From: Ustilaginoidea virens
Taxonomy: Eukaryota > Ascomycota > Sordariomycetes > Hypocreales > Clavicipitaceae
Reading direction: 5' to 3'
Length of the DNA stretch: 64,000 nucleotides
Assembly: GCF_000687475.1 (NCBI RefSeq)
Contig: NC_057321.1
Location: 2,480,001 to 2,544,000 of the forward strand
Shown: piece after piece, positions 22,191 to 44,491 of the stretch
Layout of the letters: each line of letters starts with the position of its first letter
Numbering within the stretch: the first letter of the stretch is position 1
Made by a program: the position numbers and the translations under genes
Notes under the pieces: model-generated
What the model was told of the DNA's origin: nothing
The model's input: the letters and a program-made list of their open reading frames with translations, nothing else
Databases searched by the model: none

Positions 22191-22884
22191 CTACGTCCTC
22201 ATCAAGCCCGCTGTAGGCCTCCTCGCCGCACGTGCCAGAGTATACAACACGGAACCGAGGCTTGAGATGTCATCAGCCTGGCCGGGAGCATGCCCTCCCT
22301 CCCACTCGCGTGACCGGTATCTCGGTCCCGGGGCACCACCCGACGCAGCATGTCCCGGAAACGAGCTCCCGGAAAATCGCAGATCCGCAGGTCCATGTTC
22401 CCCATCCAGGAGAAAGTCCCGAGGCGTGACGTCGCGGTGGATCACACCCACGCCGTGGGGGCTGCTCATCGCCTGGGCCGCCTGCAGAGCCCGTTTCGCG
22501 CGCGTGTCGGCATCGACCTCGCCATGGCTCCTCAAGAAGGGTCTCCAGATCTCCCCGTGGGGCGTGGTCCTCGAGAACCAATGTCCTGCATTTGCTGCCC
22601 CAGCCCATCAGCTTGGGGATAAACGGGCACGGGTCGATGTAACGGTACACCCATCGTACTCGTGCTCCATGTTCTGGCGGTCTCTCCGTTCCTCCTCGGG
22701 ATCGTATGGGTTCGGGAGCTGGGGGTCTTGGCAATGTGGTCGGAGGGCAGTCGCTCCACCAGCGCCGTTGACCCACGGCGAACATATCCCCCCTTTGTGA
22801 TGCAGCATGCGGTTCCCTCGGGGACGGGGTCGGGGATGTTGAAGGCTGACTCTGGCGCGTGCGGCCGAAGCGCCCCGCTCCCAT
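22191..22884 (-). pseudogene. Broken Ser/Thr protein-kinase-like gene
   Basis: Several minus-strand frames, taken in turn, spell a protein-kinase-like domain: a segment ending in DPVPEGT and ITKGGY (Gly-rich loop area), NPYDPEEERRDRQNMEHEYD (helix C area), YRYIDPCPFIPKLMGW, TLVLEDHAPRGDLETLL (hinge), then GVIHRDVTPRDFLLD (catalytic loop), LRICDF (DFG area) and DDISSLGSVLYTL (helix F). At least three frameshifts separate these pieces (near 22515, 22640 and 22720), the catalytic-loop Asn is replaced by Asp in one frame, and the copy stops early. The residues between motifs agree with the small accessory kinases often amplified in fungal genomes. I call it a pseudogene; no single frame spans the domain. 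Confidence 0.75.
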
Positions 22885-24298: not shown

Positions 24299-25323
24299 AT
24301 GGAAACAAGGCATTACAAGCTGCTTCCCCGCAAATCTGGCGACTTCCCGGCCGACGACTCCAGCGCAATATGCGATGCTACGAGCCGCGGCCGCCGGCAA
24401 CGAGCCTGGCGGGTTGTCGCGCTCTCTAGCATCCTGCTCAACGCAGTCCTGGGCGGACTTGCGATTGCGCACGCGACCGTCTCGCCGCTTGCTCCGTCCC
24501 TGCGTCAGCAACGGTTGTACTGTAAGTCGAGTCCGTCGCGACCAGGCCCCGGGTTCTAACGCCGAGCAGCTCCGGCGCAGCACGTCTTGCGCCGCGTCGA
24601 CCGCGTCTTCACCGGCGGATTCGGCGCAGGGGCGAGTCCCTACCAAGGGGCCCCAAACGAGACGAACAACAGGCTCTGGCGGAACCTCTACGACTGTGAG
24701 TTCTGGTCCCCCCCCCCCCCCCCCCCCCCCCATGACGGATATGCCCGAGGGCTCGCTCTGCTGTAGAGTCTGGCGGCAGGCTAACCGCCCCGCGTAGCTG
24801 TTGGCATATCGCGCATCTCCGCGGCAGAAGCTGCGCCGATGGTGAATCGGACGCTGCCCATCCCCGGCGACCACGGCTACTACGTTACGTCGCTGGATGT
24901 CTTCCACCAGCTGCACTGTCTGGTGAGCTTTGCCCGCTTTGCCCGCTTTGCAAGTCCACTGACTTCAGGTTCATCGGCTGACGTCGTGTGGGTGACGCGC
25001 AGAATGTGGTCAGGCAGGCGGTGTATGGCCACGTGGATTGGACCAACCAGGACGAGCTGTTTGCTATTGACCATATCGACCACTGCATCGATACGATCCG
25101 CCAGAGCCTGCAGTGCAACGCCGACGTCACGCCCGTCACGTTCGTGTGGTCTCGCGGGAGGAATCGCGCGCTGGAGGAAGCCCGGGTCATCCACACCTGC
25201 GTGGATTTCGAAGCCATTCGCGGCTGGGCCTCCAAGCATACGATGAGGGTGCCCTTTAATTGGACTGCGCAGATTGACGACGATCCGCTAGGCTGGGGGG
25301 CTGGTGTGGAAAGGCACGCGTGA
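24299..25323 (+). CDS. UstYa/DUF3328 family oxidase-like protein 1
   Basis: Exons 24299-24521, 24570-24695, 24798-24922 and 25003-25323 give 264 residues. Layout is that of UstYa (DUF3328): short cytosolic N-terminus (METRHYKLLP), one membrane helix at ~42-62, then a lumenal domain with the two HxxHC motifs that define the family: FHQLHCL and DHIDHCID. An N-glycosylation sequon (NRT) precedes the first motif. UstYa proteins catalyse oxidative steps such as macrocyclisation, hydroxylation or chlorination in biosynthesis of ribosomal and non-ribosomal peptides. All introns have good GT-AG ends; intron 2 contains C24 (24708-24731). The start is preferred over an upstream in-frame ATG (24146) because family members begin shortly before the helix and because TATA lies at 24188. 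The protein looks complete. Confidence 0.88.
24708..24731. repeat. C24 homopolymer in an intron of UstYa gene 1
   Basis: Uninterrupted C24 within intron 2 (24696-24797), far from both splice sites. Confidence 0.9.
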
Positions 25324-26814
25324 CGTTTGAGGGGGTTGGTGTCTAACCAGGGGTTTGCGCGGGTACTGACAAGGCTTCAGCGCGAGCGAGCGCCTGTCGA
25401 ACCTATCGGTGCTTACATGTATGTACCTGTTAGCTGGGTAGGCACCTGGGGATGTAGATATGTAGATAGTTGATAACTAGCGGTCAAGTAACGCGCCAAC
25501 AAGTTGCCCGAGTGGACTACAATTTACGAGCCGGGTAGTTGACCGAAGAGCTTGGCGTCGCGCAAAGGAACCAGACTAGATACATGCCCCACTTCACGCA
25601 CGCAATGAATCCTATCTGGCATCTCGGGCGGCAAGATGGCGGTCATGAGAAACGAAATAACCCGAGTTGTCCGGGGCACCTTGCAGCTGGGCGGAAAAAA
25701 CACCAAAGTGCCAAGGGTCATTCCATCACACGAGATTATTGAAATCCGCAATGCAAGGTGCGAAATGTGGGGCGCATGCAACATAGGTAGGTGCTAGGAG
25801 TTTTATGCGGGCGCATGAGGCGCCTCCGGCCCGCTCCGGGCCGGGGTGCCGCCCTATTCGTTCCCGTCTGAGTCACAATCAATCCCATTTCGTCCAAACT
25901 CTCCGACAAAAGGGCACCTGGCCGTGGACACCTAGCATCTTTCACCATTCTCGATATGTTTCGGCCCTGCTAAGAGGGAGTATTGACAGCGCATGCTGCA
26001 TGATAAAGCCGTACTGAAATTATTCCCGGTCGGCTTTATTGAACGCGTCCCGTCTCTCACATGGCTCCATCTCACGGAGCATAGGTGGTTCTGAGTCATC
26101 ATTAGCTGCCGCGAGGCCCGCCCGATTTTCTGGCTCCAAAGTTCCTTTCATGTTTGCTATGAGCAAGGGACAGTATATAGACGCAAAGATACAGCCCTTG
26201 CCGTAGGTAGCTCGTCAGACTGATATCCCTAGTATTGAAAAAAAACGATCCATCATTTGATGCTGACACAAGCCCCGCTACAAGTGTCAAACAAGCCAGG
26301 TGTTCCGTTCCGTACACCACAGACTCTTTGCATCCTTAAGCAAAGCTGTGCCGAAGGTGCAGCGTGCGCTACGTAAGTGCGTAAAGCGTGCCTTCCAGCT
26401 TTGCTTCTTTAATGAGAGGCCAGGGGTGCTAAGCCACCACAATCACTAGCCACATGTCATTCAAGCCAGCGATCTGATTGGTCTAGAGGGCACTAAAACG
26501 CCCCTATTGGCTGAAAAACCAGAGCCGGTACGTATCTTTGTGGATCCGGTACGTACTCTTAAGAGGCGTAAATGAGGCTATTGCTACAGCATTTAGTATT
26601 GCAAGAGGTCGGGTCTATACTTAATTATGACGAGGTGGCGGAAAAAAGACGCAGAAAGCTACATCGTCGGCTTTATGTAATGCTTTCTAAGCAGAGGCCC
26701 GCTGCAGGCGAAAAAGCCCGCTGCAGGCGGAAGCTCGCCGCAGGCGGCCCCCGGCAGGGCCCCCGGAGGGCCCCCGGAGGGGAATAATAAAAAATGCACT
26801 ATGTTAAAATATTT
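25324..26814. other. Spacer with decayed repeat sequence, no gene
   Basis: Between UstYa gene 1 and the minisatellite I see no intact gene. A 71-codon open frame at 26572-26787 ends in an Arg/Gly/Pro-rich tail generated by a GC-rich palindromic segment (26697-26785) and has no recognisable domain; this segment resembles one at 20595-20625 and is probably a transposon end. Confidence 0.5.
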
Positions 26815-27650
26815 AAGTAAAAAAAAGGCAGTAAAGGCGGTGAAGTGAGGCAGTAAAAAGGCGGTAAAAAGGGTAGTAAAAACAATAGTAAAATAAGATA
26901 GTAGAAAAGGCAGGGCAAAGGCGGTAAAATACGGCAGTAAAAGATAGTAAAATAAGGAAATAAACAGGCGGTAAAATAAGGTAGTAAAAAAGGCGGTAAA
27001 AAGACGGTAAAAAAGGCAGTAAAAGGCGGTAAAGTAAGGCAGTAAAAAGGCGGTAAAAAGGGTAGTAAAAATAATAGTAGTAAAAAAGGCAGGATAAAGG
27101 CGGTAAAATACGGCAGTAAAAGATAGTAAAATAAGGCAATAAACAGGCGGTAAAATAAGGCAGTAAAAAAGGCAGGGCAAAGGCGGTAAAATACGGCAGT
27201 AAAAGATAGTAAAATAAGGCAATAAACAGGCGGTAAAATAAGACAGTAAAAAAGGCGGTAAAAAGACGGTAAAAAAGGCAGTAAAAGGCGGTGAAGTAAG
27301 GCAGTAAAAAGGCGGTAAAAAGGGTAGTAAAAACAATAGTGGTAAAAAAGGTGGACAAAGGCGGTAAAATACGGCAGTAAAAGATAGTAAAATAAGGCAA
27401 TAAACAGGCGGTAAAATAAGGCAGTAAAAGGCGGTGAATTGAGGCAGTAAAAAGGCGGTAAAAAGGGTAGTAAAAATAATAGTAAAATAAGATAGTAGAA
27501 AAGGCAAGGCAAAGGCGGTAAAATTCGGCAGTAAAAGATGGTAAAATAAGGCAGTAAAAAGGCAGTAAAAAGGCAGTAAAGGTAAAATAAAGTAGTAAAA
27601 AAAGCAGTAAAAGAGTAGTAAAAAAGGCAGTAAATAAAGCAGTAGCTAAG
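26815..27650. repeat. Minisatellite of GGCGGTAAAA/GGCAGTAAAA units with higher-order structure
   Basis: About 835 bases composed of ~10-12 bp units (GGCAGTAAAA, GGCGGTAAAA and close variants). Units are ordered: a phrase starting AAAGGCGGTAAAATACGGCAG recurs near 26917, 27095, 27178 and 27357 and in altered form near 27509, with spacing of roughly 80 to 180 bases, so larger blocks were duplicated after the short unit spread. On the minus strand all three frames are open and Phe/Leu/Tyr-rich; this is a by-product of the repeat, not a gene. Confidence 0.9.
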
Positions 27651-28087
27651 ACGGACTAATATTTACCCGTCTGGCTACTCCGCCTTCCCTATGTCTTTGA
27701 CACTAAAGAATTCAGCGGCACCTTAGGGCTACCGCAGCTTTGCGCCTCCTACGATGCCGATAAATTCGGCGCGTCGGCCTAGTATCTCTTCAGACGTCAA
27801 CTCGTGACAGGTTTTTTGGATCAAATTGACTTCCGTGCTTTACGGACCACCGTCTCTGGGAGAGCGTTGAGTACTGGGCGGTGTGGGCTAGGAAGCAACC
27901 AAATCCTTGTCAACACATTGAGCTGAGTAACAGTAACAGATCCTTGAGTCATCAGAAATTCCTTTTTTGGTTGAGTCATTCTAGAGCCCAGAATGGGCAA
28001 ACCGCCGTTCCGCGTCTGGCTCGCATTGGCATGTCGTGACTACTAGAAGTCTTGCCGCGGTTAATAATCTGCGAAGGAAGGTCGCTA

Positions 28088-28138
28088 ACTACAGCCCCGG
28101 GCAACTACAGCCCCGGGCAACTACAGCCCCGGGCTACT
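28088..28138. repeat. Three tandem copies of a 17-bp unit
   Basis: Unit CTACAGCCCCGGGCAA repeated three times; each contains the palindrome CCCGGG. Confidence 0.85.
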
Positions 28139-28354
28139 AAAAGCCAGGAAATGTGATATTGAAGGGACTTTTTGAAGAATTCTCTTGGCCAAGTTACTCA
28201 CCCGCAAAAGTCCCTGAGGCGAGGTTCAGACTAAGGGATCCTTTGAACTTTCCTGGGGGTAGAGAAGGCCTCTCGAAGCGTAAGAGACAAATCATAATCC
28301 ACAGTGCTATGGAGTAGCTAGGTATTCACGTTCAACGTTCCTGGCGTTGTGGAA

Positions 28355-28363
28355 ATATAAAAG
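28355..28363 (+). promoter_or_regulatory. TATA-like element of the precursor peptide gene
   Basis: ATATAAAAG about 120 bases before the ATG at 28476. Confidence 0.6.
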
Positions 28364-28475
28364 CACCTTCGATGGACGTAATCTGTTCCTAGATTATCTT
28401 AATTTCAAAAAGAAATCTATTAGACAAAAATCTCTCCCCAGTTCAGTTTTTAATCTTTATTACCGATCTGCCAGA

Positions 28476-28820
28476 ATGAAGCCCACGAATATGGTCATGC
28501 TTGCCACTGCTCTCCTGGTCAACGGAGCTCTTGGATTGCCTACCGTAAGATTTATTCCTCGACTCTAAATATGGGAGATATTTTGTCTAACACTAAGTTT
28601 CTGGAAATAGCCTGGCTCTGGCATGATTTCTGGTGTGGACTCTTACTCTACACGTTCGGCTTGGACCAAGGCCGAGGTAAATACTATGCTTGAGTTAAAT
28701 AGAATCATGGTAAGCCGCTAGCTAACTTGAGCCCAGACAGAGGAATCTTCTGTTGAGAAGCGCCAATGCCCGGCATCCGAGAACAACGTGGACTGCTATT
28801 CCACTAGAACGGCATGGTAG
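28476..28820 (+). CDS. Small secreted Kex2-type precursor peptide, candidate RiPP precursor
   Basis: Three exons (28476-28544, 28611-28676, 28737-28820), all joined in phase 0, encode 72 residues. Both introns (66 and 60 bp) have GT-AG ends and a CTAAC branch site about 20 bases before the acceptor. Residues 1-20 form a signal peptide (MVMLATALLVNGALG). The rest holds an imperfect ten-residue repeat: VDSYSTRSAW in exon 2 and VDCYSTRTAW at the very C-terminus (8 of 10 identical). Between them lies SSVEKR followed by Gln, a typical Kex2 site, which would release an 18-residue peptide with two Cys, one Tyr and a C-terminal Trp. Signal peptide, Lys-Arg site, repeated Tyr-containing core and neighbouring UstYa genes are the features of UstYa-modified peptide precursors (ustiloxin/asperipin type). 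It lacks the many repeats of those precursors, so an unmodified secreted peptide is the alternative. A possible donor overlaps the stop codon (28817), so a further exon cannot be excluded. Confidence 0.7.
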
Positions 28821-29338
28821 GTGGCTTAGCCGATTACGGGATTTCAAGTCAAAGATGGTATGATATAGGACATGAGGCACAGGAGAAGCATGGCGGAAAG
28901 AATGGCGGGGAAATGGCAAAAAAAGCGTAGGTCCTTTAATCGCTAAATAAAAAAATACCATACTTTGCAATTTTGAGGGAACAAAATCCCTCTATTTTAT
29001 CCCGTTTTGCTGTTTGTAGTCACTGTAATTAATGTGGGCAATGCTTTGCTCTGCTTTGCCTCAAAGTAACTTGGTGTACATAATAATTGCTCTCCATAGT
29101 TGAGCACTTTACATCTTCCCAAGCCAATAGTATTCCTCGCTAGACCCGTTTTTTCTCCCGTTTAGCCAGGAATTGGAAATTCTGGTTGGTCGCGTGGTTG
29201 GGAGCCTGGTTTAATCTTATATATAACCCGTCTTTTACGCTGCTTGAAACTGTTCCCGCATCAGTCACCCTACCTACATTGACTGACTTCGCAACGCAAT
29301 AGAGCTTGGCAGGATCCGTTTCAACGTCATCTCACGCA
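28821..29338. other. Spacer between precursor and UstYa gene 2
   Basis: AT-rich 3' region of the precursor and promoter of UstYa gene 2; no other gene seen. Confidence 0.55.
29217..29226 (+). promoter_or_regulatory. TATA-like element of UstYa gene 2
   Basis: TTATATATAA about 115 bases upstream of the ATG at 29339. Confidence 0.55.
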
Positions 29339-30325
29339 ATGTATCAAGGGAAGATGCAGGTTGAAGAAGAGAATAACAGCCTGCTTGGGGAGGAAGAGGT
29401 TTCTGGACCTTCAAAGTCAGCTAGGAAGACTGGATCTCAAAGGCTGGCATGGCTGGTACCAATCATGGCTGCAGCATCAGCCCTTTTCTTCCTCACGGCG
29501 GCTGTCTCCTGGACATACTTTTTCAAGGCGACCTCTAAAGATTATATTTGCTACGAGAAGAAATACTGTAAGTCGGCAAGCCTTGAACATGTATTCTTCA
29601 GGACTTGAATTTTAACACATGATGACGCTTTAGCACTTGAATCGCTCTGGAATGCTGTGCGCTACGAGCCGGCGCAGTTCCACCTAGAACCTGATGTGCC
29701 ATCGCCCTTTCGAGGTAAGCCGAGGCCAGAACTGGACGAAGCGTGGGCCAATGTGACGGAAGGTAAGCAAGACACGACATGATTAGCAAGTCGGAGCTCA
29801 CAAGCAGATATCTCAGGCCACCTTATTCTGCTAAGTCCAGAGGAAATGCGAGGACTAGGGCACGCTACCCAAGGCGCGGCTATGCACGGGGACAGCTATT
29901 TGGGGCTCGTCGAGGTTTTCCACCACGTCCATTGCGTCGATTTCATCCGCAAGTACATCTTCAAAGAGCACTACCCGGACTGGAGAAATCTCGGAGGCCC
30001 ACCAGAGGCCGTCTTGGGGCATGTCGGTAAGTGTGGTTGATCAGCGTTGCTTTCTGGGTCGTCGCTCGTCGTTGGTCGCTCGTCGCTCGTCGCTCGTCGC
30101 TCGTCGCTCGTCGCTCGATGCTGATTGGTGTTAGACCACTGCATAGACCTCCTCCGGCAAAAAGTGCTTTGCGACGCCGACGTTGGCCTCATGGCGTACT
30201 CCTACGACCCCGAGACCAAATTCGCCAAGGCTCGCACATCCAACATGCACATGTGCCGCGATTTTCAAGCCATCAAGGACTGGGCGGCAGGACGGAAGTG
30301 GGAGCCGAAGGCTGACTCGGCCTAG
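29339..30325 (+). CDS. UstYa/DUF3328 family oxidase-like protein 2
   Basis: Exons 29339-29567, 29634-29762, 29808-30026 and 30135-30325 give 255 residues. A charged N-terminus (EEENNSLLGEEE) precedes one membrane helix (~38-60, LVPIMAAASALFFLTAAVSW). The lumenal part has PRPELDEAW, a common UstYa sequence, and both HxxHC motifs: FHHVHCV and, directly after intron 3, DHCID, where the preceding residues come from GHV. A second in-frame ATG lies at 29354. Exon 2/3 splice (45-bp intron) is the least certain: acceptor GCAG at 29804-29807 was chosen because it keeps the frame and yields DISGHL. Intron 3 carries seven or so TCGTCGCTCG-like units. The gene looks complete. Role as for the family: oxidative tailoring of a peptide; it is the UstYa gene closest to the precursor, about 0.5 kb downstream on the same strand. 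Confidence 0.86.
30051..30118. repeat. GTCGCTC array in an intron of UstYa gene 2
   Basis: Repeated GTCGCTC/GTCGTTG units (about eight) inside intron 3 (30027-30134). Confidence 0.85.
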
Positions 30326-31187
30326 CCGGATTTGGAAGGTGGTGTGTGGGCGGCTCGAATCGGGAAAGGGCGAAGGATAAGCGGGGAGTGGGAAATGGGG
30401 AAGTGGGGACGCCCAAGTTACATGGGCCGTCGCAGAAATTTCATCTCATCTCACCTGCATCCTGCGTCCTACGTCTTCCCCTGCATCTGCACAAAAAGCC
30501 CCGAGACGTCAATCCCCCAACGTTACCGGCGCCGATGGGGCTTGATCTTAGCTCCGCCATTACTATGAATGCTTATTACTACCATCTATACTTATCCAAA
30601 GGAACCATTTCCCTTGGTTCTGTCCCTTTCCTACCGCCGAGGCCATGTTTCCCATCTGCCCCACATTAAAGCCGTTGCCCACGGGACAATTCATCACCCT
30701 GGCTTGAAGACAGCTCTTGGTGGGTCTCAATATCTAGGAACTTTTGAAAAGCTTCAGCGGGCTGATAGTCAACTCGTACGACCAGTGTCCTCAAAAGCGA
30801 CCCTGGCTCGTCTCACCCGTGCGAAGCGGGCTGCAAGGTACGAGGCGGTAGGCTGCCGCGACTCGGCACGGAGCCGAAGTAGCATGAGCACCTTGAGGCT
30901 GTCCTACGTCGCAAAATTCCCCGACGACTTGTCAGTAGAGTCTAGACTCTCAAACCTGGAGCCTGCCATGCTACGGACTTCTGCACCAAAAGATGTCTCA
31001 CCTCGGCCGGGACCTGACTTCATCAGCTTCTTCGCGTCTCGATAAATATGTCGAGATGCCCAACAGGATTTCGAAACCAGCCTTCCCTATCCGTTCTACC
31101 CAATATAGTCCCCTTTTCCATATTGTCCATCATCCGTCTGCCTCGGTGACTTGACCAAATCAAAAATACATCATCACCCACGCCATC
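30326..31187. other. Spacer between UstYa gene 2 and the APH-like gene
   Basis: Contains a 158-codon open frame (30569-31045, plus strand) of Ser/Arg/Leu-rich sequence without motif or signal peptide; I do not support it as a gene. The last 100 bases are the leader of the APH-like gene. Confidence 0.5.
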
Positions 31188-32492
31188 ATGTCCTTGAACG
31201 ACAAGCACGCAGCCTTGATACGGAGCATCCTGCAAGACCGGTTTCTCCTGGCACCAAATGCTTTTAAAATTGAGCCAGTTAAAGAGGCCAAGAATAATCA
31301 CGTCTTCTTGCTCAAGTTGACCAGTCCAACCTTGGAACCTTCCCCCCCCTCCAACCAGGTATTTACGACCCCTATCCCTGCCAAAACATCGCGTCTGGTG
31401 TTTCGGATACCCAAAGAGAACGTCAGCTTGGAGGACTCGGTGCGTATCCGCAACGAGGTCGCTTTTCTTACCCTGGCCCGCGAGGCTCTCTCGCCCATCG
31501 GTCCCTCTCTTACTCCCGCCGTGTTTGGCTGGTCAGATACGGTTTCCGACTCCAGCTTTGGCTGGATTCTAGAGGAGTGGAAAACTGGGGAACACCTCAC
31601 AATCCAAAAGCTCGTGAAGCTTGGCGACGAGACGCAGCGCCTCGTCCTAGGTCAGATGGCAAAGGTTGCCAAATGTCTCCAGGACTACCAGCTACCGGAC
31701 AGCGCGACCGAGTTTGGTGGCCTTACCTTTGACGAAGAAGGGACGATTAAAAGCACCAAGAGTGTAATTCCCTGTGGAGGGCCGTTTCCTTCCTACGGCG
31801 CCTTTCTGAAGGGCACGTTCCGTTGGCAACTAGAGGCAAGCGAGCGAAGCACGCATGTAAACGGCTGGCGTGACTATCCCGAGCTGCGCAAAAGGATCGA
31901 CGCCTTTTTCGCCGACGGACTGGACGGGGTTATAGCCAAGGTGCCAAAGCAGAAGCCAACATTGGTCAACGCAGATATCGGTAAGGAAACCCCAAACACT
32001 TGATTTTGCTGCGGTCCCCCCCCCTGTTTTCACGCCAGCTAATTAAGTGCTCTAGCCTTTGTAAACCTGCGTTTTGATCCCGCAACGTATCGGCTCACCG
32101 CCGTGCTGGACTTTGACTTTTCGCACGTCGGGGCGCCTATTTCCGAGCACCTGTTCTCGTTCTGGGACTGGGACGCCTTGCTGCCCAGCCAGGCGAATCC
32201 TGTTGGATCGTTGCGGGAATGGATGCTTGAAGGCTTTCCAAAGGACGTAGAAGATTGTTTCAAGGTGAATCGGCTATGGGATGACATGTTGGCCGATGCT
32301 CATGCGCAAAAACCTTCCACGATCGCGGGAGCCGGTCTCATGGCCGACCTGTGGTGGTTTTCGCAGGAGCTGTGCCAGGCGTACTGGTTTATGGAAAGGA
32401 TCGTCGGAAAATCCTCAGCTAAGGAGCTCGAGGAGAAGAAGAAAGATAGCGCGGCTAAGCTTGACAAGTATCTGGCGTTGTGGGGGTTCTAG
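31188..32492 (+). CDS. APH-fold phosphotransferase (aminoglycoside/choline-kinase-like)
   Basis: Exons 31188-31980 and 32056-32492 (intron 75 bp) encode 409 residues with no signal peptide. The fold is recognised from the C-terminal half: VNADIAFVN fits the catalytic loop pattern [H/N]xDxxxxN, here with Asn in place of the usual His and with the intron splitting it, followed by VLDFDFSHVG, the metal-binding Asp segment of the family, and a helical C-terminus. The N-lobe has RLVFRIPKE (likely the Lys-containing strand) and IRNEVAFLTLARE (helix C Glu). Related fungal proteins phosphorylate small molecules or remain uncharacterised; the substrate is unknown. It lies on the same strand between UstYa genes 2 and 3 and could act in the same pathway, but the neighbourhood is the only hint. 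Confidence 0.8.
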
Positions 32493-32920
32493 CTGCGTAG
32501 CTAGGTGCTCTGCAGAATCTGCACGGTGAAATTCTGTACGCGTAATGCTCGCTTACATAGTAACTACTTGGTAGACTCTTTTCATTTCTCCAACAACAAC
32601 ATACCTCTTTGACTGTCCAGCTCATAGAGGTCCCCTTGGGGGATTAGCAACTTGACATGCAGGTTAGGCTCACGCCCTCGTTGAGAGTAGCCATGCCATC
32701 GACCATGGCCAGGTTTTCTCATGACAAGGAACAAGGGTTGAATTCCATGTTGGCACTGCAGTTTTCAAATACGGACTAGCTTTTGAAGGCTCCTATGGAG
32801 AGCACCCTTTGCCAGGCCCCGCCAGGCCAATATATATCTTGCTGCCTCCTCCCTCCCTCTTCTTTCTCCAACACCTCCCAAGGCTGCTATGCATATCGAG
32901 GCACACACCGCACCTACACC
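32493..32920. other. Spacer and promoter of UstYa gene 3
   Basis: No gene. A TATA-like ATATATAT (about 32830-32838) lies 85-90 bases before the ATG of UstYa gene 3, followed by a CT-rich leader. Confidence 0.55.
32830..32838 (+). promoter_or_regulatory. TATA-like element of UstYa gene 3
   Basis: AATATATAT upstream of a CT-rich leader (TCCTCCCTCCCTCTTC) and the ATG at 32921. Confidence 0.5.
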
Positions 32921-33914
32921 ATGAATACCATCAAGAGCATCTTTTCCCAGCCACGCTATCAGACGGTGGATGCGGACGCCAACACCGCCAGTGATTCGTC
33001 TGAGCCCGACGACAACCTTTTGCACAAGCGGCGCACGCAAGCTCCGCGCCGCGGCGTGCCAGCAATCACGCTGGCTGTGCTTCTTGTAGTGTCCAACATC
33101 GCCACCGGGATCCTTGCCGTCCTCGTAACGAAAGGCGCCTTTTGCGGATGGCACGAATCCTCCCTGAACAGCGACTTGAAGCGCGCCAACGCCTACTGTG
33201 AGTTAGCATGCAGCCTCCCTCGCTCACCCCTTTCCCCTCCCCTTCCCCCCAGCGCCCGTCCCCAGCCTGACAGCCCGGCACGCAGCCCCCATCTACGACC
33301 AGCTGGACCTCAACGTCAGCCTGACCACCCTCAACGGCGCCTTGCGGGACAACTCGTCCATCTGGCGGCAGCCCCCGTCCCCCGCCGTCGACGCCGCCTG
33401 GGACCGCATATCCACCGAGGGCCTGGAGCTCGTCACCGTCACGGCGGCCGACGTGGCCAAGTCGGGCAAGGACCCGTCGGCGACGCTGCGGGCCCCGCTG
33501 TCCTGGGGCCGCGGCGAGGGCGCCTACCTCGCGCAGATCGAGGTGTTCCACCAGATCCACTGCCTGAACGAGCTGCGCAAGGAGATGCACCGCGGGTACT
33601 ACTACGGCGGGAAGGGGGACGGCGGGGACGAGCTGCGCCGGGCGCACAAGTCGCACTGCGTGCACATGCTGCTGCAGGCGCTGGCGTGCCGGGCCGACGT
33701 GGGCATCGTCACGCACAACTGGGTGCGCAACGAGGGCATCGCGGAGCCCAAGACGCGGCTGATGCCGGACTTTAGCACGGTCAAGAAGTGCGTCGACTTT
33801 GAGGGGCTGCTGGGGTGGGCGAGGGGGGCGGCCGTCGAGGATCTGCGGAGCAGGTGGGCGGACCTGCGGTGGACGCCGGGCGAGACGATTGTGCCGGGGC
33901 AGGGGTACGCGTGA
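32921..33914 (+). CDS. UstYa/DUF3328 family oxidase-like protein 3
   Basis: Exons 32921-33197 and 33253-33914 (one 55-bp intron) encode 312 residues. N-terminus MNTIKSIFSQPRYQ is cytosolic; the membrane helix is at ~49-70 (ITLAVLLVVSNIATGILAVLV); the lumenal domain has NVSLTTLNG and NSS sequons and the two HxxHC motifs FHQIHCL and HKSHCVHM. It is longer and far more GC-rich than UstYa genes 1 and 2 and has only the first intron in common with them, so it is an older paralogue or a separate acquisition rather than a recent duplicate. The upstream in-frame codons from 32783 contain the TATA and CT-rich leader and are not taken as coding. Function as for the family; complete. Confidence 0.88.
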
Positions 33915-34391
33915 GCAAGCCGAGGGGAAGGGCCGGAGAGGGCCGGAGAAGGCCGGAGCGGAGGAATCCCGAGGAGGCGCTGGCTGGACGGCAAGTCTCG
34001 TGGGCATCAGAATCGCGGTGCCGGGGGGTAGGAGCTCCGACGGGGTGCTGTCAAGTCACGGGGCCAAAGCACGCAGGCAAGGCCCAAATTCACCAGCGAG
34101 ATCACAGACGCGCGCAAAAGTATATTTGTCATGTAGATAAGTCTCCCTCAACGGAATCACGGGAAGAGCTGCCTACACAGTCCACGCGACCAGCCAGATA
34201 CCTGCCAGAGCCCTAGGCTCCAGCCCACGCCGGAGAAGAAAATGGCCCAAAGTCGAGCTTTGGCGCCCAACTGTTGCGCGCCACGACCCCGAGTACTGCC
34301 GTTGACCCGAGGCGCGGTGCAGAGTAGACGGGCACCGCGTCCGCTCGCGGGAGCTTAGAAAACCACACGCAACGGGGCGCGCTTTGCCGGC
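33915..34391. other. Convergent spacer between UstYa gene 3 and the repeat-tailed secreted protein
   Basis: GGCCGGAGA-like units near 33926-33958; no gene supported. Minus-strand open frames reaching into it are shadows. Confidence 0.55.
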
Positions 34392-34814
34392 TTAGTCGGG
34401 GCCTCGTGCTGCTCGGTCGCGGCCTCGTGCTGCTCGGTCGCGGCCTCGTGCTGCTCGGTCGGGGCCTCGTGCTGCTCGGTCGGGGCCTCGTGCTGCTCGG
34501 TCGGGGCCTCGTGCTGCTCGGTCGGGGCCTCGTGCTGCTCGGTTGCGGCCTTGTGCTGCGGCCATTGGAGGCTTCTTCTTGTTGTGAGGCAAGCAATCCC
34601 CCGCGCACTCAAGGTCGTAATCATCATAGCAGGTGCACGTCTGAGTCACCTCCCCGGCGGTACATTGTGCTTGATATTTTTGGACCGGTCTAGTGTGCGG
34701 CTTTATGCAGCAAGGCGCACCCGCGTTGAAAAGCGCGCCCGGGCAGGTCTCAGAATAAGATGCCCGGACGACAGTGCCGAGGCCCAAGGCGAGGAGGGGG
34801 GCAAAGCAGCGCAT
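34392..34814 (-). CDS. Small secreted Cys-rich protein with a 7-residue tandem-repeat tail
   Basis: Single exon of 140 residues. Residues 1-18 are a signal peptide (MRCFAPLLALGLGTVVRA). Residues ~19-75 contain eight Cys (one, an adjacent pair, then five more, including TCTC) and look like a compact disulfide domain. The tail is a tandem array of RGPDRAA (with QGRNRAA and RGRDRAA variants) encoded by a 21-bp unit repeated about eight times (34397-34553); it ends with RGPD and a stop. Because 21 is a multiple of three, all three frames stay open over the repeat; the frame given is the one with signal peptide and Cys domain. No family recognised. It may be an effector-type or wall protein; single Arg residues instead of Lys-Arg make a Kex2-processed peptide precursor less likely. 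Confidence 0.6.
   Translation of the reverse strand: MRCFAPLLALGLGTVVRASYSETCPGALFNAGAPCCIKPHTRPVQKYQAQCTAGEVTQTCTCYDDYDLECAGDCLPHNKKKPPMAAAQGRNRAARGPDRAARGPDRAARGPDRAARGPDRAARGRDRAARGRDRAARGPD
34397..34553. repeat. 21-bp tandem repeat, about eight copies
   Basis: Unit (minus strand) CGAGCAGCACGAGGCCCCGAC with G/C variants in two copies. It encodes the tail of the secreted Cys-rich protein. Confidence 0.92.
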
Positions 34815-36490
34815 CCTAGGTGCCTTGCACGCATGATGATTAGTACTGGTTCTGGTGTGCGGGGAGCGAGTTTGCGTACTTTGAAGTGCGTAAAAAAAAC
34901 AGGTTGGTCGGCCTTGGGTTGGTAGCTGGAAGATGAGAGGAGAAGAAAGAGCTGAGGTGTGTAGAGCGGAAGAGCAGGACGAAGAGGAGAATGGAGGGCC
35001 TTTATAGAGAAAAGCGTTGGCGATGGTGCGGCCCTCGTCGCTCGTGTAGCTGCATCAACTTGACCGCAGGCATGTCGACTCTTTGCTGTAAATGTCTCAT
35101 GATGCGGGCTTTGGGGGGCATTTCCCACATGCCCGTTTCCACGCTCGAGAAGTAACAAGAGGCTGCGGACTCGCCCCGGGGGTCGGAGAGTGTCGGCGTC
35201 GACACCACCCGAGGCCAGCACAAGGGTGTTTTCATCTAGCGCCATCTACGCGGTCGACTCGCTCGAGTTACATTGCATCTCCTGCAGTGTCGTGTCGGTG
35301 AAGAAACGCGTCCAGAGGGTTGCAAGAAAAGCGCGCTCCTGCAAGGATATGCGGTTGGTCGATGCTCGGCCGTATCCGAGAGTCATGAGTTATGCGGGAA
35401 AACCCAGTGACAGCCTAAATAGAGCCGCATCCGTTATCAAGACGGGGATCCTCAGGGCCGGTGAAATCAGGCCCACGGGGCCGCGTAGATAATATTTGGC
35501 CCTGCGTGGTACGATGTACTATCGGAGCCGACTCCGTAGTTGCCGGCAATGATTGACTACTGTACATCAGTCGCGCCGCGCCGCGCCGCCCCGGCTGGCT
35601 GGGCGGTCCACGTGGCAAGTATGTACTGTACTTGGCCAGCGCCTTGCATCGCATCGCGTCTTGGCGCTGGAGCGCTAGCGCTGCAAAGCTGCCTGGCGCG
35701 TGCCTAGATAGCCGAGCCGATAAGGCCCCGCCTACTGGGTACGGAGTTGCGCCGATGTAGCAACATGATTCGCTAGGTGCCGCCGCGACGCGGGGAATTC
35801 GCCGATTCGCCGATTCGCCGGGCCGTCTCCCGCGAAATCCCCGGCACAATCTCGCAGAATCTCCGACAGAATCTCCGACCGGCAGCGGGCAGCCAGTTGC
35901 AGAACCCGGCCCCGGCCAACGCTTGACCCGCCGCGCCCGCCGACTGGGCGGCGCGGTCGGGGCTCTCCCTCCACTCTTATGCGGGCGGCTGCGGCCAACA
36001 GGAAGAAGTGAGACAGCAAGGAACCGCGGTAACATACGTGGCGCCCGAGGCAACCCCCAGCGCTAGCGGCCCAGCGCCCTGGGCTAGAACGCCGACCCCG
36101 CATGCGCCCCATCAGCCGGAGCCTCCGGCGGCGCCGGCCCAGACTCCCGGGGCGTAAGCAGGCGCGCCCGTCGGACAGGCCGAGCCGGATGCGGCGCAGC
36201 CTACGCAACGGTCGACGGAGTGCAAACTGGCTACGAATCAGGGTGGATAAGTTTTCCTCGGATCCTGTCCATGCCAAGGCGCGAGTCCTGGTCCTGCGGA
36301 TGAATTTAACGTGGCTTCCTCTGCAGCAACCCATTGCTACTATTTCCCTGCTTGTAACATAGCAGCATATACGTATGGACGTATGCTCTTCAAGCAGGAC
36401 CTCGAGGTACGTGCGCACGCCACTTGGCATGTTCGATCATGTATGTGCCTTTGATGCGAATCGTCTAGCCGTGGCCCATTGTGGAAAATG
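34815..36490. other. Spacer left of the secreted-protein array
   Basis: No gene seen. The right end (about 35980-36490) is shared with 38810-39420: for example TGCGGGCGGCTGCGG at ~35981 occurs inverted at ~38845, and GCATGCGCCCC...CAGCCGGAGC...TCCGGCGGCGCC at ~36101 recurs at ~39111 in direct orientation. This is therefore the outer part of the duplicated cassette. Confidence 0.55.
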
Positions 36491-36812: not shown

Positions 36813-37133
36813 ATGCATCTCTCGCGCATCGTCATCGGCCTCGCCGCCCTCCTGGCCCCCCTTGCCGCGGCTGTCAGAGCCCGCGACATCATCGACCGCA
36901 GCGATCTTGTCGAGTATAAAATCTTTCGAGACCACCTGCCCCAGGACCAGCGCACCAAGATGTCCTTTGTCCAAGCCGGCCGCGGCAGCAATTTTATCCG
37001 GGTTGACGTCTATAGCTCGTCTGGCAACAGCCCACAGTGGCAATACTTTAGACTATTTAAAGCCCGCGAAAACGCCCAGCGGATTCTCAACCCTGGTCAT
37101 CGCAGGTCTATCGAGATTCCTCAGCAAGAATAG
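36813..37133 (+). CDS. Small secreted protein, array member 1
   Basis: Single exon, 106 residues. Signal peptide MHLSRIVIGLAALLAPLAAA, then a mature part without Cys: RDIIDRSDLVEYKIFRD, FIRVDVYS, YFRLFKARENAQRIL and a basic GHRRSIEIPQQE end. It is closest to member 2 (shared GHRRSI and PxQE end). The start is the first ATG after the leader CAAGACTTTCCCC and a TTTAAATTCCGG element near 36697. No family known to me; length, secretion and tandem amplification suggest an effector-like or antimicrobial role, which is inference. Confidence 0.8.
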   Translation: MHLSRIVIGLAALLAPLAAAVRARDIIDRSDLVEYKIFRDHLPQDQRTKMSFVQAGRGSNFIRVDVYSSSGNSPQWQYFRLFKARENAQRILNPGHRRSIEIPQQE

Positions 37134-37691
37134 CACTCACCTTCAGATGCTCAGATAGCACTTATCTGGGTGCTGTTAGTTATAAATGGTTAAATAATAC
37201 TACTAGGGGGAACAAAGGACAGCGTTTTAGGGAGGGTCTTCTTTAGTAGAAGTGATGCGAACACGGCACCCTACGAGTGAGGGGAAGGGCCGGCAGAGGC
37301 GTCTTATCTAGGTAGAGAGAACTAGGCTGCCGTGGGTTGCAATAGTCATAAAGCTTTTGATATGCCAGGAATCGATAGCTCTTCCACCAAGCAAACAAGA
37401 TGAGAAGCCAAGAGAGTGCAAAAGGCGACTAAGCATCAGAGTCTCTCTTGTCCTATAAACAAACGAAACAAGCGATCCTGGCGTAGCTTTTCCAACAATT
37501 AAATATTTCCTTATTGCACATCATGATCCTAGGTATGCCCCGCTTGCGCCACCGTGATAAGTGAAACTATCAACTATTCTGCCTTTATCTCCTTTTAAAC
37601 TATTTGTCTTGTTTAGCATATATGCCACGTTGCAGCTTCATATGCCTTTGATGGATTTTAAACTTCCAGCGGTGGCCGAGTATTAAACAGC

Positions 37692-37708
37692 GCTGATGTG
37701 GCGCTCGT
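37692..37708 (+). promoter_or_regulatory. Conserved upstream motif, array member 2
   Basis: GCTGATGTGGCGCTCGT followed by GTAGCAGAGGGTTAAAC, 215 bases before the ATG; TATAATAA at 37801 is the likely core promoter. Confidence 0.6.
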
Positions 37709-37906
37709 GTAGCAGAGGGTTAAACCTAAAAACTATACAATCAGCCACCGGTTTTGAAAAGGACACATGATCGATATAAGTCAGATAGTATAGCCAAGTC
37801 TATAATAAGGCACGCATGGCCAGAACTACGTAGGCTTAGAGACGGACTCCTAACAGCCTATCCTTTAGTTTACTTACAAGACTCTCCCCTCGCAAAAAGC
37901 AGGCCA

Positions 37907-38221
37907 ATGCATCTCCCGCGCATCGTCGTCGGCCTCGCGGCCCTCCTGGCCCCCCTTGCCGCGGCTTTCAAACAACGCGACCTCATCGACCCCAGCGAAC
38001 TTGGCCTCTTTAGAGAATTTGAAGCCCGGCTGGCCGATAACCACGAGTTCACCAAGGTTTCCCTTATCCAAGGCGGCCGCCTTGTCCGGTTTGATGTCTA
38101 CAGCCCGTCTAGCGCCGGCTCACGGCGGATTGGCTTTAAGGATTTCAGAGCCAGCAAGAACGCCGCGCAGATTCTCAACCGTGGCCATCGCAGGTCGATC
38201 GTCCTTCCTCGGCAAGAATAG
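37907..38221 (+). CDS. Small secreted protein, array member 2
   Basis: Single exon, 104 residues, starting at MHLPRIVVGLAALLAPLAAA (signal peptide). Mature part: RDLIDPSELGLFREFEARL, LVRFDVYS, FKDFRASKNAAQILNRGHRRSIVLPRQE. No Cys. An in-frame extension to 37754 contains the leader (ACTCTCCCCTCGCAAAAAGC) shared with the other members and is not coding. Downstream sequence (38222-38400) matches that after members 1, 4 and 5, including GGGCCGGCAGAGG. Confidence 0.82.
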   Translation: MHLPRIVVGLAALLAPLAAAFKQRDLIDPSELGLFREFEARLADNHEFTKVSLIQGGRLVRFDVYSPSSAGSRRIGFKDFRASKNAAQILNRGHRRSIVLPRQE

Positions 38222-39419
38222 CACTCATCTCAAGATGCTTGAAAAGCACTCATCTAGGGGCTATCAAGTATTGCAGGGTCAAATACTGTTACTAGGGGAG
38301 TAAAGGGTAGCATTAGGGAGGGCGTTGTTTAGTGGAAGTGATGTGCATACGTCTCCTAGGAGTTAGGGACAGGGCCGGCAGAGGCGCATCATAGAAGCAG
38401 ATAAACTATATAGGGGTAGGTCGCAGAAGTTACAAATCTAGTTCAATAAATACACAGGCAATCGACGGCTTTTTATAGTAGTAAGAGAGTGCAAAAGGCG
38501 ACCAAGGCCATGATCAATGTGCGTGCGCCTGGCGCCCAGAATTGGCGCACTCTTTACAAATGATGGCACCCTACCAGAACTAGTAAGGATTAGCCACATA
38601 GTTTTGTAGAAGCCATCCAAGAACACTACAAACCCTGGTAGGGGCCCTGGGAGCCTGGGAGCCCCCGGGGCTACTCCATGCCAGGAGGCGAGGTGGTCTT
38701 TTGCAGAAACGCACAATATCCAACAATTATATTCCGCCAGCAGCCCTCGACGCTTTCTATCTTGATCCCGTAATAACAATAGCCCGGAACAGACGCCCGC
38801 GAGCAGATACCGCGGCCCCTTGCCGTCTCGCTCCTTCCTGTTGACCGCAGCCGCCCGCACAAAGACGAGACACAACCTACGCAGAGCCTGCCTGGGAAAA
38901 CGTAGCACCCACCGACTGGCCAGCGGGCCGGGGGTTCAGACTGGAACACTTGTTCTTGATGCCTCCGCCGCGTCCCGCCGCATCTCCTCTGCATCTGCTG
39001 AAACACAGGTACCTTTTCCACCATCCACCTCTGCAAACGCCGCGTTTCTTGGCGCGCAAGCCGGCCCGCGCTAAGCGCTCGAGCGTCCCCGGCCTAGTCG
39101 CCGACTGCGCATGCGCCCCCATCATATCATCAGCCGGAGCGTCCGGCGGCGCCAGTACCCCGGCGAGCCCGCGGCAATCGATAGGGTGCGCAAAAACGTG
39201 GCTTCAAAGTAGGGCGGGATAGTTTCGTTCTGTCCATGCACAAGGCACGGACGGATCCTGGTCCTGTTGCAGCAAAGCCTATCCTACTGCTTCCCTGCCT
39301 GTGGGAGCACGTTATGCCTGGGTGTATGGAGGCGCGGACGCGAGCCACTTTGCAAGGCTCCATCATGCGTCTTTGACGCGAGAAAAAGTTGTCTAGCCGT
39401 GGCCCATTGCGGACAAAAG
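38222..39419. other. Spacer within the array, with captured scj1 fragment
   Basis: Contains the conserved 3' block of member 2, then a segment shared in part with 35980-36490. A short stretch (38944-39011) is derived from the scj1 gene found at 53.2 kb. No intact gene. Confidence 0.55.
38944..39011 (-). pseudogene. Fragment of the scj1 (DnaJ) zinc-finger region
   Basis: About 68 bases align with 53190-53270 in the same orientation: ACACTTGTTCTTGATGC is identical, then the CCGCCGCG..., and CATCTGCATCTGCTG-like sequence follow, with a deletion of about 9 bases. Translated on the minus strand the fragment gives FQQMQ and, in another frame, IKNKC, both found in the DnaJ Cys-rich region. The frames are broken, so it is a non-coding captured or duplicated gene scrap. 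Confidence 0.7.
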
Positions 39420-39436
39420 GCTGGTGTGGCGCTCGT
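39420..39436 (+). promoter_or_regulatory. Conserved upstream motif, array member 3
   Basis: GCTGGTGTGGCGCTCGT, now 1011 bases before the ATG of member 3; removing the transposon and one target duplication (691 bases) restores 320, like member 1. Confidence 0.6.
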
Positions 39437-39604
39437 ATCCGCCGAGAGTCAAACCCCTCAAAATGTTCGTTTTCGGTACTAACCATCTGGTCAATCCACA
39501 TGGGGGGGATTCACCAAACCCACTCTTTCTTTTAGACTACGTTACCGCTCTGGATAGGTGCCCATGTTTGGCGCAATTCCCCCCAGCACCATGGCCAGAG
39601 ATAC

Positions 39605-39610
39605 TATAAA
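39605..39610 (+). promoter_or_regulatory. TATA element of array member 3
   Basis: TATAAATCCCGG, matching TATAAATTCCGG of member 4. It lies before the transposon at 39724, so the element sits in the transcribed leader if this TATA is used. Confidence 0.5.
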
Positions 39611-39723
39611 TCCCGGCAGCAGTCCAGTCCAGTCCCGTCCGGCTCAGACCTGCTCAGACCTGCTCAGACCAACCCCCGACAAGCCAAGCACTCAAGTTCT
39701 CGGCAAGATTCTCCCCTCGGAAA

Positions 39724-40405
39724 GAGGGTACAGGTCAACCGACCTGTGTCCCCCCCTTGTCATCCGACCCCCCCATAATAACTTAACTGACCTGACCATT
39801 GCTGTGGGCTGTATTCTTAATATAATTGGTTTATTAGGGAATAGTGGGTTAAGTCACTTTGCATAGAAAATTATATAAAAAGTACTTTCTCTGCTATTTT
39901 ACTAGGTTCTTAGGTAGGGGTACCTGGTAAAAGAAATTAAAGAAGTCTCTTTATATATAAAAATATATATAAGGGTACCTCTCTCTCTATTTCTAGAACC
40001 TAGGTACCTAGATACTTAGTAGAAGTATTAGAAGTCACTTTATATGGAAAAATATATATAAAGGTACTTTTTTCTATTATAGTACCTAAGTACCTAAGTA
40101 CCTACCTAGTAAAAAGAAAAGAAGTCACTTTCTGTAGAAAGGTCTATATAAAGGTACTTTCTTTACTTTCAATATTAGGTTCTTAGGTACCTAGGGATAT
40201 AAAATCAAAGTATAATAGAAGTCACTTTCTATAGAAAAAAATATATAAAGATACTTATAGTCTAGTGGCTACTGTAGATTAAAGGATCCACTACTCTTTA
40301 TTAGCGTATCTCTATATTAGGAAAGAGCCTTGGTCAGGTCAGTTAAGTTATTATAGGGGGGTCGAATGACAAGGGGGGGGCATAGGTCGGTTGATATGTA
40401 GTCTC
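39724..40405. mobile_element. Non-autonomous TIR transposon (MITE), copy 1, 682 bp
   Basis: The ends are imperfect inverted repeats of about 75-80 bases: left GAGGGTACAGGTCAACCGACC... and right ...GGTCGGTTGATATGTAGTCTC, continuing inward through TTGTCATCCGACCCCCCCAT / ATAGGGGGGTCGAATGACAA and TAACTTAACTGACCTGACC. The insertion is flanked by a perfect 9-bp duplication, CCTCGGAAA (39715-39723 and 40406-40414). The AT-rich interior is about five ~100-bp units starting with AAGTCACTTT and containing TATATAAAGGTAC. There is no coding capacity. Nine-base duplications with long terminal repeats are typical of Mutator-like elements, so that superfamily is the likely source. It lies in the 5' leader of member 3. 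Confidence 0.9.
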
Positions 40406-40430
40406 CCTCGGAAAAGCCCAACGACAAGCA

Positions 40431-40742
40431 ATGCATCTCCTGCGCATCGCTATCGGCCTCGTCGCCCTCCTGGTCTCCCTTGCCGCGGCCTATGAACCCA
40501 TTGACGTCATCGCCCCTTCTGACCGTAGAAGATACACAAGATTTGTAAACTCTATGACAGCGGCGCGCCAGCATTCTAGAATGCGCCTTTCGGATAACGG
40601 CAACACCATCATAGCTCGTGTCTACTCCTCACCAGCTCAAGGCGGATATTTCAAATTCTCCAGGACCTTCGCGGCTAGCACAGAAGCCTATAGTACTTTC
40701 GAGCTACTCCGTTTCAGGCCAATTGTTGTTGGTTATGTATAG
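40431..40742 (+). CDS. Small secreted protein, array member 3 (transposon in leader)
   Basis: Single exon, 103 residues. Signal peptide MHLLRIAIGLVALLVSLAAA; mature part begins YEPIDVIAPSD, with IIARVYSS in place of VDVYS and FSRTFAASTEAYS later, ending FRPIVVGYV. One of the more divergent members; with member 6 it shares an [F/Y]E..D.IA start. The coding sequence is intact, but the 682-bp element sits 26 bases before the ATG with only the duplicated CCTCGGAAA between them, so expression may be altered. Confidence 0.8.
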   Translation: MHLLRIAIGLVALLVSLAAAYEPIDVIAPSDRRRYTRFVNSMTAARQHSRMRLSDNGNTIIARVYSSPAQGGYFKFSRTFAASTEAYSTFELLRFRPIVVGYV

Positions 40743-41376
40743 TAGCACTTGTCCTCAAGAGATGCTTAGAAGGCGTCAGTCTGGGTGCTATCAAGTATTG
40801 CGGGTTAAATTGCTAACTGCCGGTGGAATAAGGGATGGCGTCAGGCAGGGGGGTTTTTTTTTGCGGAAGGTGTGAGGGACAGGGCCGGCAGCGGCATCGC
40901 ATATAAGTAGATAAACTACATATAGGCTGCCGTAGGTCGCAGTAGCTACAAATCTAATTAAGTAAATACACAGGCAATCGATAGCTCCTTATAATAAGTA
41001 AGACGAGCAGCTAAGAGAGCGCAAAATGCGACCCAGGCCGTGACCTAAGTATGTACGTGCGCCTGGCGACTAAAATTGGCGCACCAGACTCTTTACAAAT
41101 AATAGCGCCTTGCCAGAAACAGTAGGGATTAGCAATATATTATGATGGAAGCATCCTAGAACATGATCACCTTCGCTAGCAGGGGCCGCTTTCATGCACT
41201 GGAAAAGGAGTAGCTGCTAAGGATACACGAAATCAATTCGGCGCAGTGGCTCAAAATTGGCGTTTCTGTCTAGCGTTCTATAATACAAGCATATTCTACA
41301 AGCTATTAGCCCCACGTATTTCATAAGTCCCTTTGCATCGCGAGGCGTACTTGGAGTCTGGGCCTTTGTAAACAGG

Positions 41377-41393
41377 GCTGATGTGGCGCTCGC
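41377..41393 (+). promoter_or_regulatory. Conserved upstream motif, array member 4
   Basis: GCTGATGTGGCGCTCGC followed by ATAGCAGAGGGT, 221 bases before the ATG; TATAAATTCCGGC at 41498. Confidence 0.6.
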
Positions 41394-41597
41394 ATAGCAG
41401 AGGGTAGAATTGCCCTTGCATGTTCTTTTTTACTAATATTTAGGCCACCTTTCTACGTCGCCAAGTAGATAAATAAGGCATGCATGGCCAGAACTGTTAT
41501 AAATTCCGGCTCCCATCTGGCTTACGGACGGACTCCTAATAGCCCATCCCCTTAGGTTCTTTGCAAGACTCTCCCCTCGCGAAAGCAGCGTTAGGCC

Positions 41598-41930
41598 ATG
41601 CACCTCTTTCGCATCGTTATCGGCCTCGTCGCCCTCCTGGCCCCCCTTGCCGCGGCTAATGGAGCCGGCATTATCGACCCCAGCGCTTTGGCCCAGTTTA
41701 GAGTCTTTCAAGCCCAGCTGGACCCGAACCACCAGTATACCAAGACGTCCCTTGTTAAAGACGGCCGAGGCGACTATTTAATCCGGGTTGACGTCTACAG
41801 CTACGCCGAACCAGAGAGGCAATCCTATAGATTATTTCCAGCTAGCAGGTACGCCTTGCAGATTCTCAACGAGCAGAATAGCGACCAGAAAAATCCCAAC
41901 CCGCGCAGTCGCAATCGCAAGCACATTTAG
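41598..41930 (+). CDS. Small secreted protein, array member 4
   Basis: Single exon, 110 residues. Signal peptide MHLFRIVIGLVALLAPLAAA; mature part NGAGIIDPSALAQFRVFQAQL, LIRVDVYSYAE, YRLFPASRYALQILNE and a basic tail NPRSRNRKHI. The first ~40 mature residues are nearly the same as in member 5 (NGAGII.PSAL). No Cys. Conserved 3' block follows (GGGGGAATAAAGGACAGCGTCAGGGAGGGTG). Confidence 0.82.
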   Translation: MHLFRIVIGLVALLAPLAAANGAGIIDPSALAQFRVFQAQLDPNHQYTKTSLVKDGRGDYLIRVDVYSYAEPERQSYRLFPASRYALQILNEQNSDQKNPNPRSRNRKHI

Positions 41931-42583: not shown

Positions 42584-42600
42584 GCTGATGTGGCGCTTCT
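42584..42600 (+). promoter_or_regulatory. Conserved upstream motif, array member 5
   Basis: GCTGATGTGGCGCTTCT, 166 bases before the ATG; TATATAATCCCAC at 42645. Confidence 0.55.
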
Positions 42601-44474: not shown

Positions 44475-44491
44475 ACTGCAGAGTGTTTCAC

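What the first reader, a model, noticed from the sequence alone, without database searches (positions are those of the whole stretch)
24299..33914. Candidate UstYa-type peptide (RiPP) gene cluster with three UstYa genes, a Kex2-type precursor and an APH-like kinase
Seen: three genes with the membrane-helix plus double-HxxHC layout of UstYa/DUF3328 lie on one strand within 9.6 kb, with a 72-residue secreted precursor and an APH-fold gene between them. Known: UstYa proteins with Kex2-processed repeat precursors make ustiloxin- and asperipin-like cyclic peptides. Inference: these genes form one pathway. The usual partners (methyltransferase, P450, tyrosinase, peptidase, transporter) are absent here, so the cluster would be minimal or of a new type, with a kinase as unusual partner.
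Basis: partly seen in the sequence, partly recalled or inferred. Interest (0 to 1): 0.88.

Follow-up and report, generated by a model that had tools for sequence, protein, structure and literature searches.

The report
Fungal peptide cluster with partner kinase
This stretch of a rice-infecting fungus's chromosome holds a compact set of genes that probably makes a small chemically modified peptide from an unusually short precursor, with a kinase-like gene whose nearest relative in the genome also sits beside a gene of the same enzyme family.

Summary
On the + strand stand three intact UstYa genes (Pfam E 2.7e-45 to 2e-47), a 72-residue secreted precursor and an APH-family gene, all with GT-AG introns.

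The precursor repeats VDxYSTRxAW: 8 of 10 residues match but only 21 of 30 bases, and 6 of the 9 base changes are silent. In the scan tuned to this repeat it is the window's only pair outside a minisatellite.

Two of the genome's other four UstYa places hold classical Kex2-repeat precursors, one in the ustiloxin-type cluster. But this precursor has one dibasic site and two copies, below the published definition of three or more. The kinase may be more than a bystander: its only relative found by sequence in the 37 Mb genome also lies beside a UstYa gene. No shared promoter motif was found, and homologues in other fungi could not be searched.

Verdict: probably a real, small UstYa peptide cluster with an atypical precursor. 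Product and kinase role are unproven.

The parts
24299..25323 (+). UstYa-A, 4 exons, 264 aa, HxxHC at residues 153 and 182
   Evidence: (PF11807 E 1.4e-45)
28476..28820 (+). Precursor gene P, 3 exons, 72 aa: signal-peptide-like start, one KR, two copies of VDxYSTRxAW
   Evidence: no Pfam family; no second copy in own genome. Signal peptide judged by eye, no predictor run
28635..28664 (+). First repeat copy VDSYSTRSAW (exon 2)
28758..28763 (+). KR dibasic (Kex2-type) site
   Evidence: read from the translation
28764..28817 (+). Predicted released 18-residue peptide QCPASENNVDCYSTRTAW
   Evidence: read; release is inferred
28788..28817 (+). Second repeat copy VDCYSTRTAW (exon 3, ends at the stop codon)
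29339..30325 (+). UstYa-B, 4 exons, 255 aa, HxxHC at residues 158 and 191
   Evidence: (PF11807 E 2.7e-45)
31188..32492 (+). K, APH-family gene, 2 exons, 409 aa; no signal-like or membrane segment
   Evidence: (PF01636 E 2.1e-10); relative beside a UstYa gene at C4:5622940-5624144
32921..33914 (+). UstYa-C, 2 exons, 312 aa, HxxHC at residues 192 and 224
   Evidence: (PF11807 E 2e-47); closest to the C1 UstYa, 37% over 97 aa

Best explanation
A small UstYa-type ribosomal peptide cluster. P is carried into the ER by its signal peptide. The lumenal domains of the three single-pass UstYa proteins oxidise side chains in its VDxYSTRxAW copies, the tyrosine being the likeliest site, forming a cross-link or other change. 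Kex2 cuts once after KR and releases an 18-residue peptide that ends in YSTRTAW; the first copy leaves on the propeptide half. K, which has no signal or membrane segment and so is probably cytosolic, acts on the product or an intermediate there, most plausibly as a phosphotransferase for self-protection or late tailoring. Shown: the gene structures, families, motifs, repeat and genomic neighbourhoods. Inferred: shared pathway, oxidation, cleavage, topology and the role of K.
For: Three intact UstYa genes with double HxxHC around P. P's repeat is kept as peptide while its DNA has drifted: 8 of 10 residues, 21 of 30 bases, 6 of 9 base changes silent; 143 of 100,000 random placements of 9 changes alter two or fewer residues. 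The same scan finds the repeat precursors at two of the other four UstYa places (L013, L014) and none at L015 or L016. Tyrosine is in 65.6% of repeat sequences of precursors with UstYa neighbours against 38.2% of those without (PMC7329392, section read). K's only relative found by sequence in its genome lies next to a UstYa gene; a naive chance of lying within 2 kb of one of the 4 other places is about 0.0004. Precedent: the APH-family kinase ComG in the corramycin cluster phosphorylates and inactivates that peptide (PMC10996006, passages).
Against: P falls outside the published definition of a Kex2-processed repeat protein. No k-mer is shared by the five upstream regions above control, and K lacks the TATA-like box seen 90-121 bases before the other four starts. 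3.2 kb with a minisatellite separates UstYa-A from P. The second UstYa-APH place shows no recognisable precursor, so the kinase pairing need not involve a peptide like P. K has Asn where its relative has His in the catalytic loop and Arg near where it has Lys in the N-lobe, so its activity is uncertain. UstYa proteins also occur in polyketide and nonribosomal pathways (PMC12048977, section 22). No expression data and no relatives from other fungi were available.
Confidence: 0.6

Rival explanations
1. P is an ordinary secreted peptide (signal or effector) cut by Kex2 and left unmodified; the UstYa genes act on another substrate and the neighbourhood is coincidence.
For: P has a cysteine pair and a single KR, and lies in a stretch with other small secreted genes: at least seven members of an MHLxR family at 36.8-45.8 kb. 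78% of Kex2-repeat proteins in one survey have no UstYa neighbour (22% do; PMC7329392).
Against: P stands between two UstYa genes, 518 bases before one of them, in the same orientation. It has a repeated tyrosine motif. It is not the alpha-pheromone: the only close pair of WCxxxGQxCW matches is on C2, with a third single match on C1 and none on C6 (the motif is recalled).
Confidence: 0.25
2. The three UstYa genes and P form a pathway, and K is an unrelated neighbour.
For: APH-family genes are numerous: 24 matches in this genome, a lower bound that did not even list K. K lacks the TATA-like box of the other four.
Against: K's only relative found by sequence stands beside a different UstYa gene, and K lies 428 bases upstream of UstYa-C on the same strand.
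Confidence: 0.35
3. The cluster is silent or decaying, P being a remnant of a longer repeat precursor that lost cores.
For: Only two copies and one KR remain, where the other two precursors of this genome have five and eight copies. A minisatellite has grown next to it.
Against: All five reading frames are intact with splice sites, and the two copies are conserved at the peptide level despite silent drift.
Confidence: 0.12

Closest known systems
Ustiloxin-type cluster on C4 of the same genome (L014)
   Same: UstYa genes beside a secreted, Kex2-cut, tyrosine-bearing precursor
   Different: That precursor has eight YxIG copies each bounded by KR; a tyrosinase and FMO-like ORFs (label recalled) lie there; no APH gene was seen in the 9.9 kb read
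C1 locus of the same genome (L013)
   Same: Few genes: a secreted precursor and a UstYa gene, the latter closest to UstYa-C
   Different: Five SPYxDTDKIAV copies separated by KR, one UstYa, no APH seen
Asperipin-2a, phomopsin, epichloecyclin and victorin clusters (from papers: passages and sections)
   Same: UstYa-family oxidation of peptides, mostly from secreted multi-core precursors
   Different: Classical repeat precursors; I recall no APH gene in them and did not test this
Corramycin kinase ComG (PMC10996006, passages)
   Same: APH-family kinase encoded in a peptide natural-product cluster
   Different: Bacterial, nonribosomal peptide; similarity of K to ComG itself was not tested

Membership tests
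UstYa (DUF3328) protein family | Pfam PF11807 match above cut-off and two HxxHC motifs | tested here: met
   A, B and C: 155-162 bits against a cut-off of 25; two HxxHC each
Dikaritin / UstYa-RiPP cluster | Secreted precursor close to UstYa genes | tested here: met
   P lies 518 bases from UstYa-B; signal peptide judged by eye only
Dikaritin / UstYa-RiPP cluster | Tyrosine in the repeated core | tested here: met
   Y in both copies
Dikaritin / UstYa-RiPP cluster | Cyclised or otherwise modified product | not testable with these tools
   needs mass spectrometry
Kex2-processed repeat protein (definition of PMC7329392) | At least three tandem repeats of 8 or more residues between Kex2 sites | tested here: not met
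   two copies, one KR; definition
APH (PF01636) | Pfam match above cut-off | tested here: met
   41.2 bits against 23.2
APH (PF01636) | Catalytic-loop Asp and Asn and the metal-binding Asp (motif recalled) | tested here: inconclusive
   Loop reads NADIAFVN with LDFDF; the relative reads HGDFTTNN with VDFDW. Asp and Asn kept, His changed
Fungal alpha-pheromone precursor | WCxxxGQxCW-type repeats (recalled) | tested here: not met
   absent from P; three matches in the genome, two on C2 and one on C1

The most novel reading that the evidence does not exclude
The APH-family kinase is a dedicated partner of some UstYa peptide pathways, phosphorylating the cyclised peptide for self-protection or maturation, and P represents a class of single-cut, two-core UstYa precursors that repeat-based genome mining is set to miss.
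Probability: 0.2. Interest if true: 0.75.

Novelty: new variant of a known kind. Interest (0 to 1): 0.5.

Why it matters
Repeat-based searches define fungal UstYa precursors by three or more Kex2-bounded cores, and authors working on lichens asked whether UstYa clusters without visible repeats use a single-core precursor (PMC12048977, section 22). P is a concrete intermediate case that could be tested. If the kinase pairing holds in other fungi, it would point to a new tailoring or self-protection step in these pathways, in a fungus already known for ustiloxins.

Tried and rejected
Rejected: P as alpha-pheromone. Membership of the ustiloxin cluster: the ustiloxin-type precursor lies on C4, not here. 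Shared promoter element: none above control for 6-, 7- or 8-mers, and CGG..CCG pairs differ between genes. Alternative end of P exon 2 at the GTAAG of 28710: it would leave a 27-base intron (reasoned, not run).

Led nowhere: AlphaFold of the UstYa-C lumenal domain from one sequence gave mean pLDDT 36.8 and no usable model; the five-row fragment alignment was poor, so it was not used. No PDB sequence matches UstYa-C at E 1 or better; K's best is 0.023. Precursor search at L015 and L016: scans found no convincing one; one search printed one unconvincing L015 ORF. These scans are not sensitive: (8-mers) missed P, one search missed the L014 precursor, and one search missed P, I believe because of its GTAAAT donor. 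A search for UV8b_0764 to UV8b_0768 locus tags returned one paper, PMC12028740. The strings YSTRTAW, QCPASENN and VDCYSTR occur in 0 papers of the held library. PMC13233505 counts four fungal-RiPP-like entries in UV-8b without places, so I cannot say whether this locus was already flagged.
Full report
Place and organism. The window is G000:C6:2480001-2544000 of a 37.16 Mb genome in 8 contigs. The lengths of C1, C2, C4, C6 and C7 equal those of five chromosomes of Ustilaginoidea virens UV-8b in Table 3 of PMC13233505 (passages seen), so I take the window to be on chromosome 6 of that strain. Passages of PMC12028740 name the ustiloxin genes of this species.

The genes. Five models on the + strand splice to intact reading frames: UstYa-A, precursor P, UstYa-B, APH-like K and UstYa-C. 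Pfam gives UstYa for A, B and C at E 1.4e-45, 2.7e-45 and 2e-47, APH for K at 2.1e-10, and nothing for P. Each UstYa has one N-terminal hydrophobic segment with 4-5 K/R in the 15 residues before it and 1-2 after, and two HxxHC motifs; from the positive-inside rule (recalled) the HxxHC domain would face the lumen. K has no comparable hydrophobic segment. Neighbouring genes named by Pfam are an actin relative, an ankyrin protein, a protein kinase, a DnaJ and a DEAH-type helicase; the ORF and coding-score lists show no large synthase gene, but the whole window was not scanned with Pfam.

The precursor. P reads MKPTNMVMLATALLVNGALGLPT / PGSGMISGVDSYSTRSAWTKAE / TEESSVEKRQCPASENNVDCYSTRTAW, with exon breaks at the slashes. 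The two copies VDSYSTRSAW and VDCYSTRTAW agree at 8 of 10 residues and 21 of 30 bases; five of the eight shared residues use different codons, so 6 of 9 base changes are silent. When 9 random changes are put on copy one, 143 of 100,000 trials alter two or fewer residues; 0 of 20,000 shuffles of the two halves reach the alignment score. A first scan with 8-residue words missed P. With 10-residue words, at least 8 matches and at most 23 of 30 bases alike, the window gives 19 pairs, 18 in the minisatellite and 1 in P; 20 shuffled windows give 3 in all. Those settings were chosen after P was known. P has no second copy in the genome.

The other UstYa places. The genome has 9 PF11807 matches, read as 8 genes in 5 places. 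C4 near 5.707 Mb (L014) holds a precursor with eight YxIG copies bounded by KR, two UstYa genes, a tyrosinase and FMO-like ORFs, that is a ustiloxin-type cluster (the core names and FMO label are recalled). C1 (L013) holds a precursor with five SPYxDTDKIAV copies and one UstYa. C4 near 5.621 Mb (L015) holds a UstYa and, about 1.8 kb further on the same strand, an APH-family gene. C2 (L016) holds a UstYa gene with no partner that I recognised. Thus three of five places have a tyrosine-bearing, KR-containing precursor and two of five have an APH gene; the window is the one place with both.

The kinase. A search with K finds, at E up to 1, itself and the L015 gene and nothing else: 4 matches, 2 per gene, the L015 ones at 4.0e-18 and 0.073. 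The two proteins align end to end with 113 of 398 aligned residues identical. The Pfam APH search lists 24 other matches and neither K nor the L015 gene, so the APH superfamily is large and that count is a lower bound. The naive chance of a given locus lying within 2 kb of one of the other 4 UstYa places is about 0.0004; this is a post hoc figure. ComG, an APH-family kinase in the corramycin cluster, phosphorylates and inactivates its peptide (PMC10996006, passages), which makes self-protection a sensible guess for K. K has NADIAFVN where its relative has HGDFTTNN, so its activity needs testing.

Results against. P is not a Kex2-processed repeat protein by the published rule of three or more repeats between Kex2 sites (PMC7329392, section 13). 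The upstream regions share no k-mer above control: one 6-mer in all five against a control mean of 2.15, no 7- or 8-mer. A TATA-like box lies at -109, -120, -121 and -90 of A, P, B and C but none of the patterns used is found before K. UstYa proteins are not confined to ribosomal peptides (PMC12048977, section 22). Relatives in other fungi could not be searched and no expression data were seen.

How it most likely works. P enters the ER; UstYa lumenal domains oxidise side chains in the repeated motif; Kex2 cuts once after KR; the freed 18-residue peptide, perhaps with N-terminal pyroglutamate and a disulphide, leaves the cell or is handled further; K acts in the cytosol on product or intermediate. 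The gene structures and families are shown; each later step is inferred.

Comparison and novelty. By enzyme family, neighbourhood and tyrosine core it works like a dikaritin cluster; by precursor it fails the strict repeat definition. I therefore call it a new variant of a known kind. The sequence strings of its peptide occur in 0 held papers, and PMC13233505 counts four fungal-RiPP-like entries in this strain without giving places, so an automatic flag on this locus may exist.

Noticed in passing
window 36813-45790, + strand: Tandem array of seven small secreted proteins of one family (MHLxRIVIGLxALLAPLAAA...) with no Pfam match for the three tested. The genome has about 19 members in six places (C6 window 7, C1 3, C7 6, one each on C3, C4 and C6), some at weak E-values; two of the six places lie next to UstYa loci.
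   Followed up: partly
L013:3143-3487 (C1:4843642-4843986), - strand: A second classical Kex2-repeat precursor of this genome, five SPYxDTDKIAV copies, beside a UstYa gene and 1.8 kb from members of the MHLxR family.
   Followed up: partly
L015:4490-8481 (C4): UstYa gene followed by an APH-family gene with no recognisable precursor.
   Followed up: partly
window 34376-34925, - strand: Cysteine-rich secreted-looking ORF and, in another frame, an ORF with TEQHEAP-type 7-residue repeats from a 21-base DNA repeat; no Pfam match.
   Followed up: no
window 26800-27660: Long minisatellite of GGTAAAA-type units between UstYa-A and P.
   Followed up: no
window 22191-22884, - strand: Weak, partial protein-kinase match (PF00069 E 4.5e-05, below cut-off) in one frame with kinase-like stretches in others by eye; may be a decayed kinase gene. 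Not reconstructed.
   Followed up: no
window 24708-24731: Run of about 24 C in intron 2 of UstYa-A.
   Followed up: no
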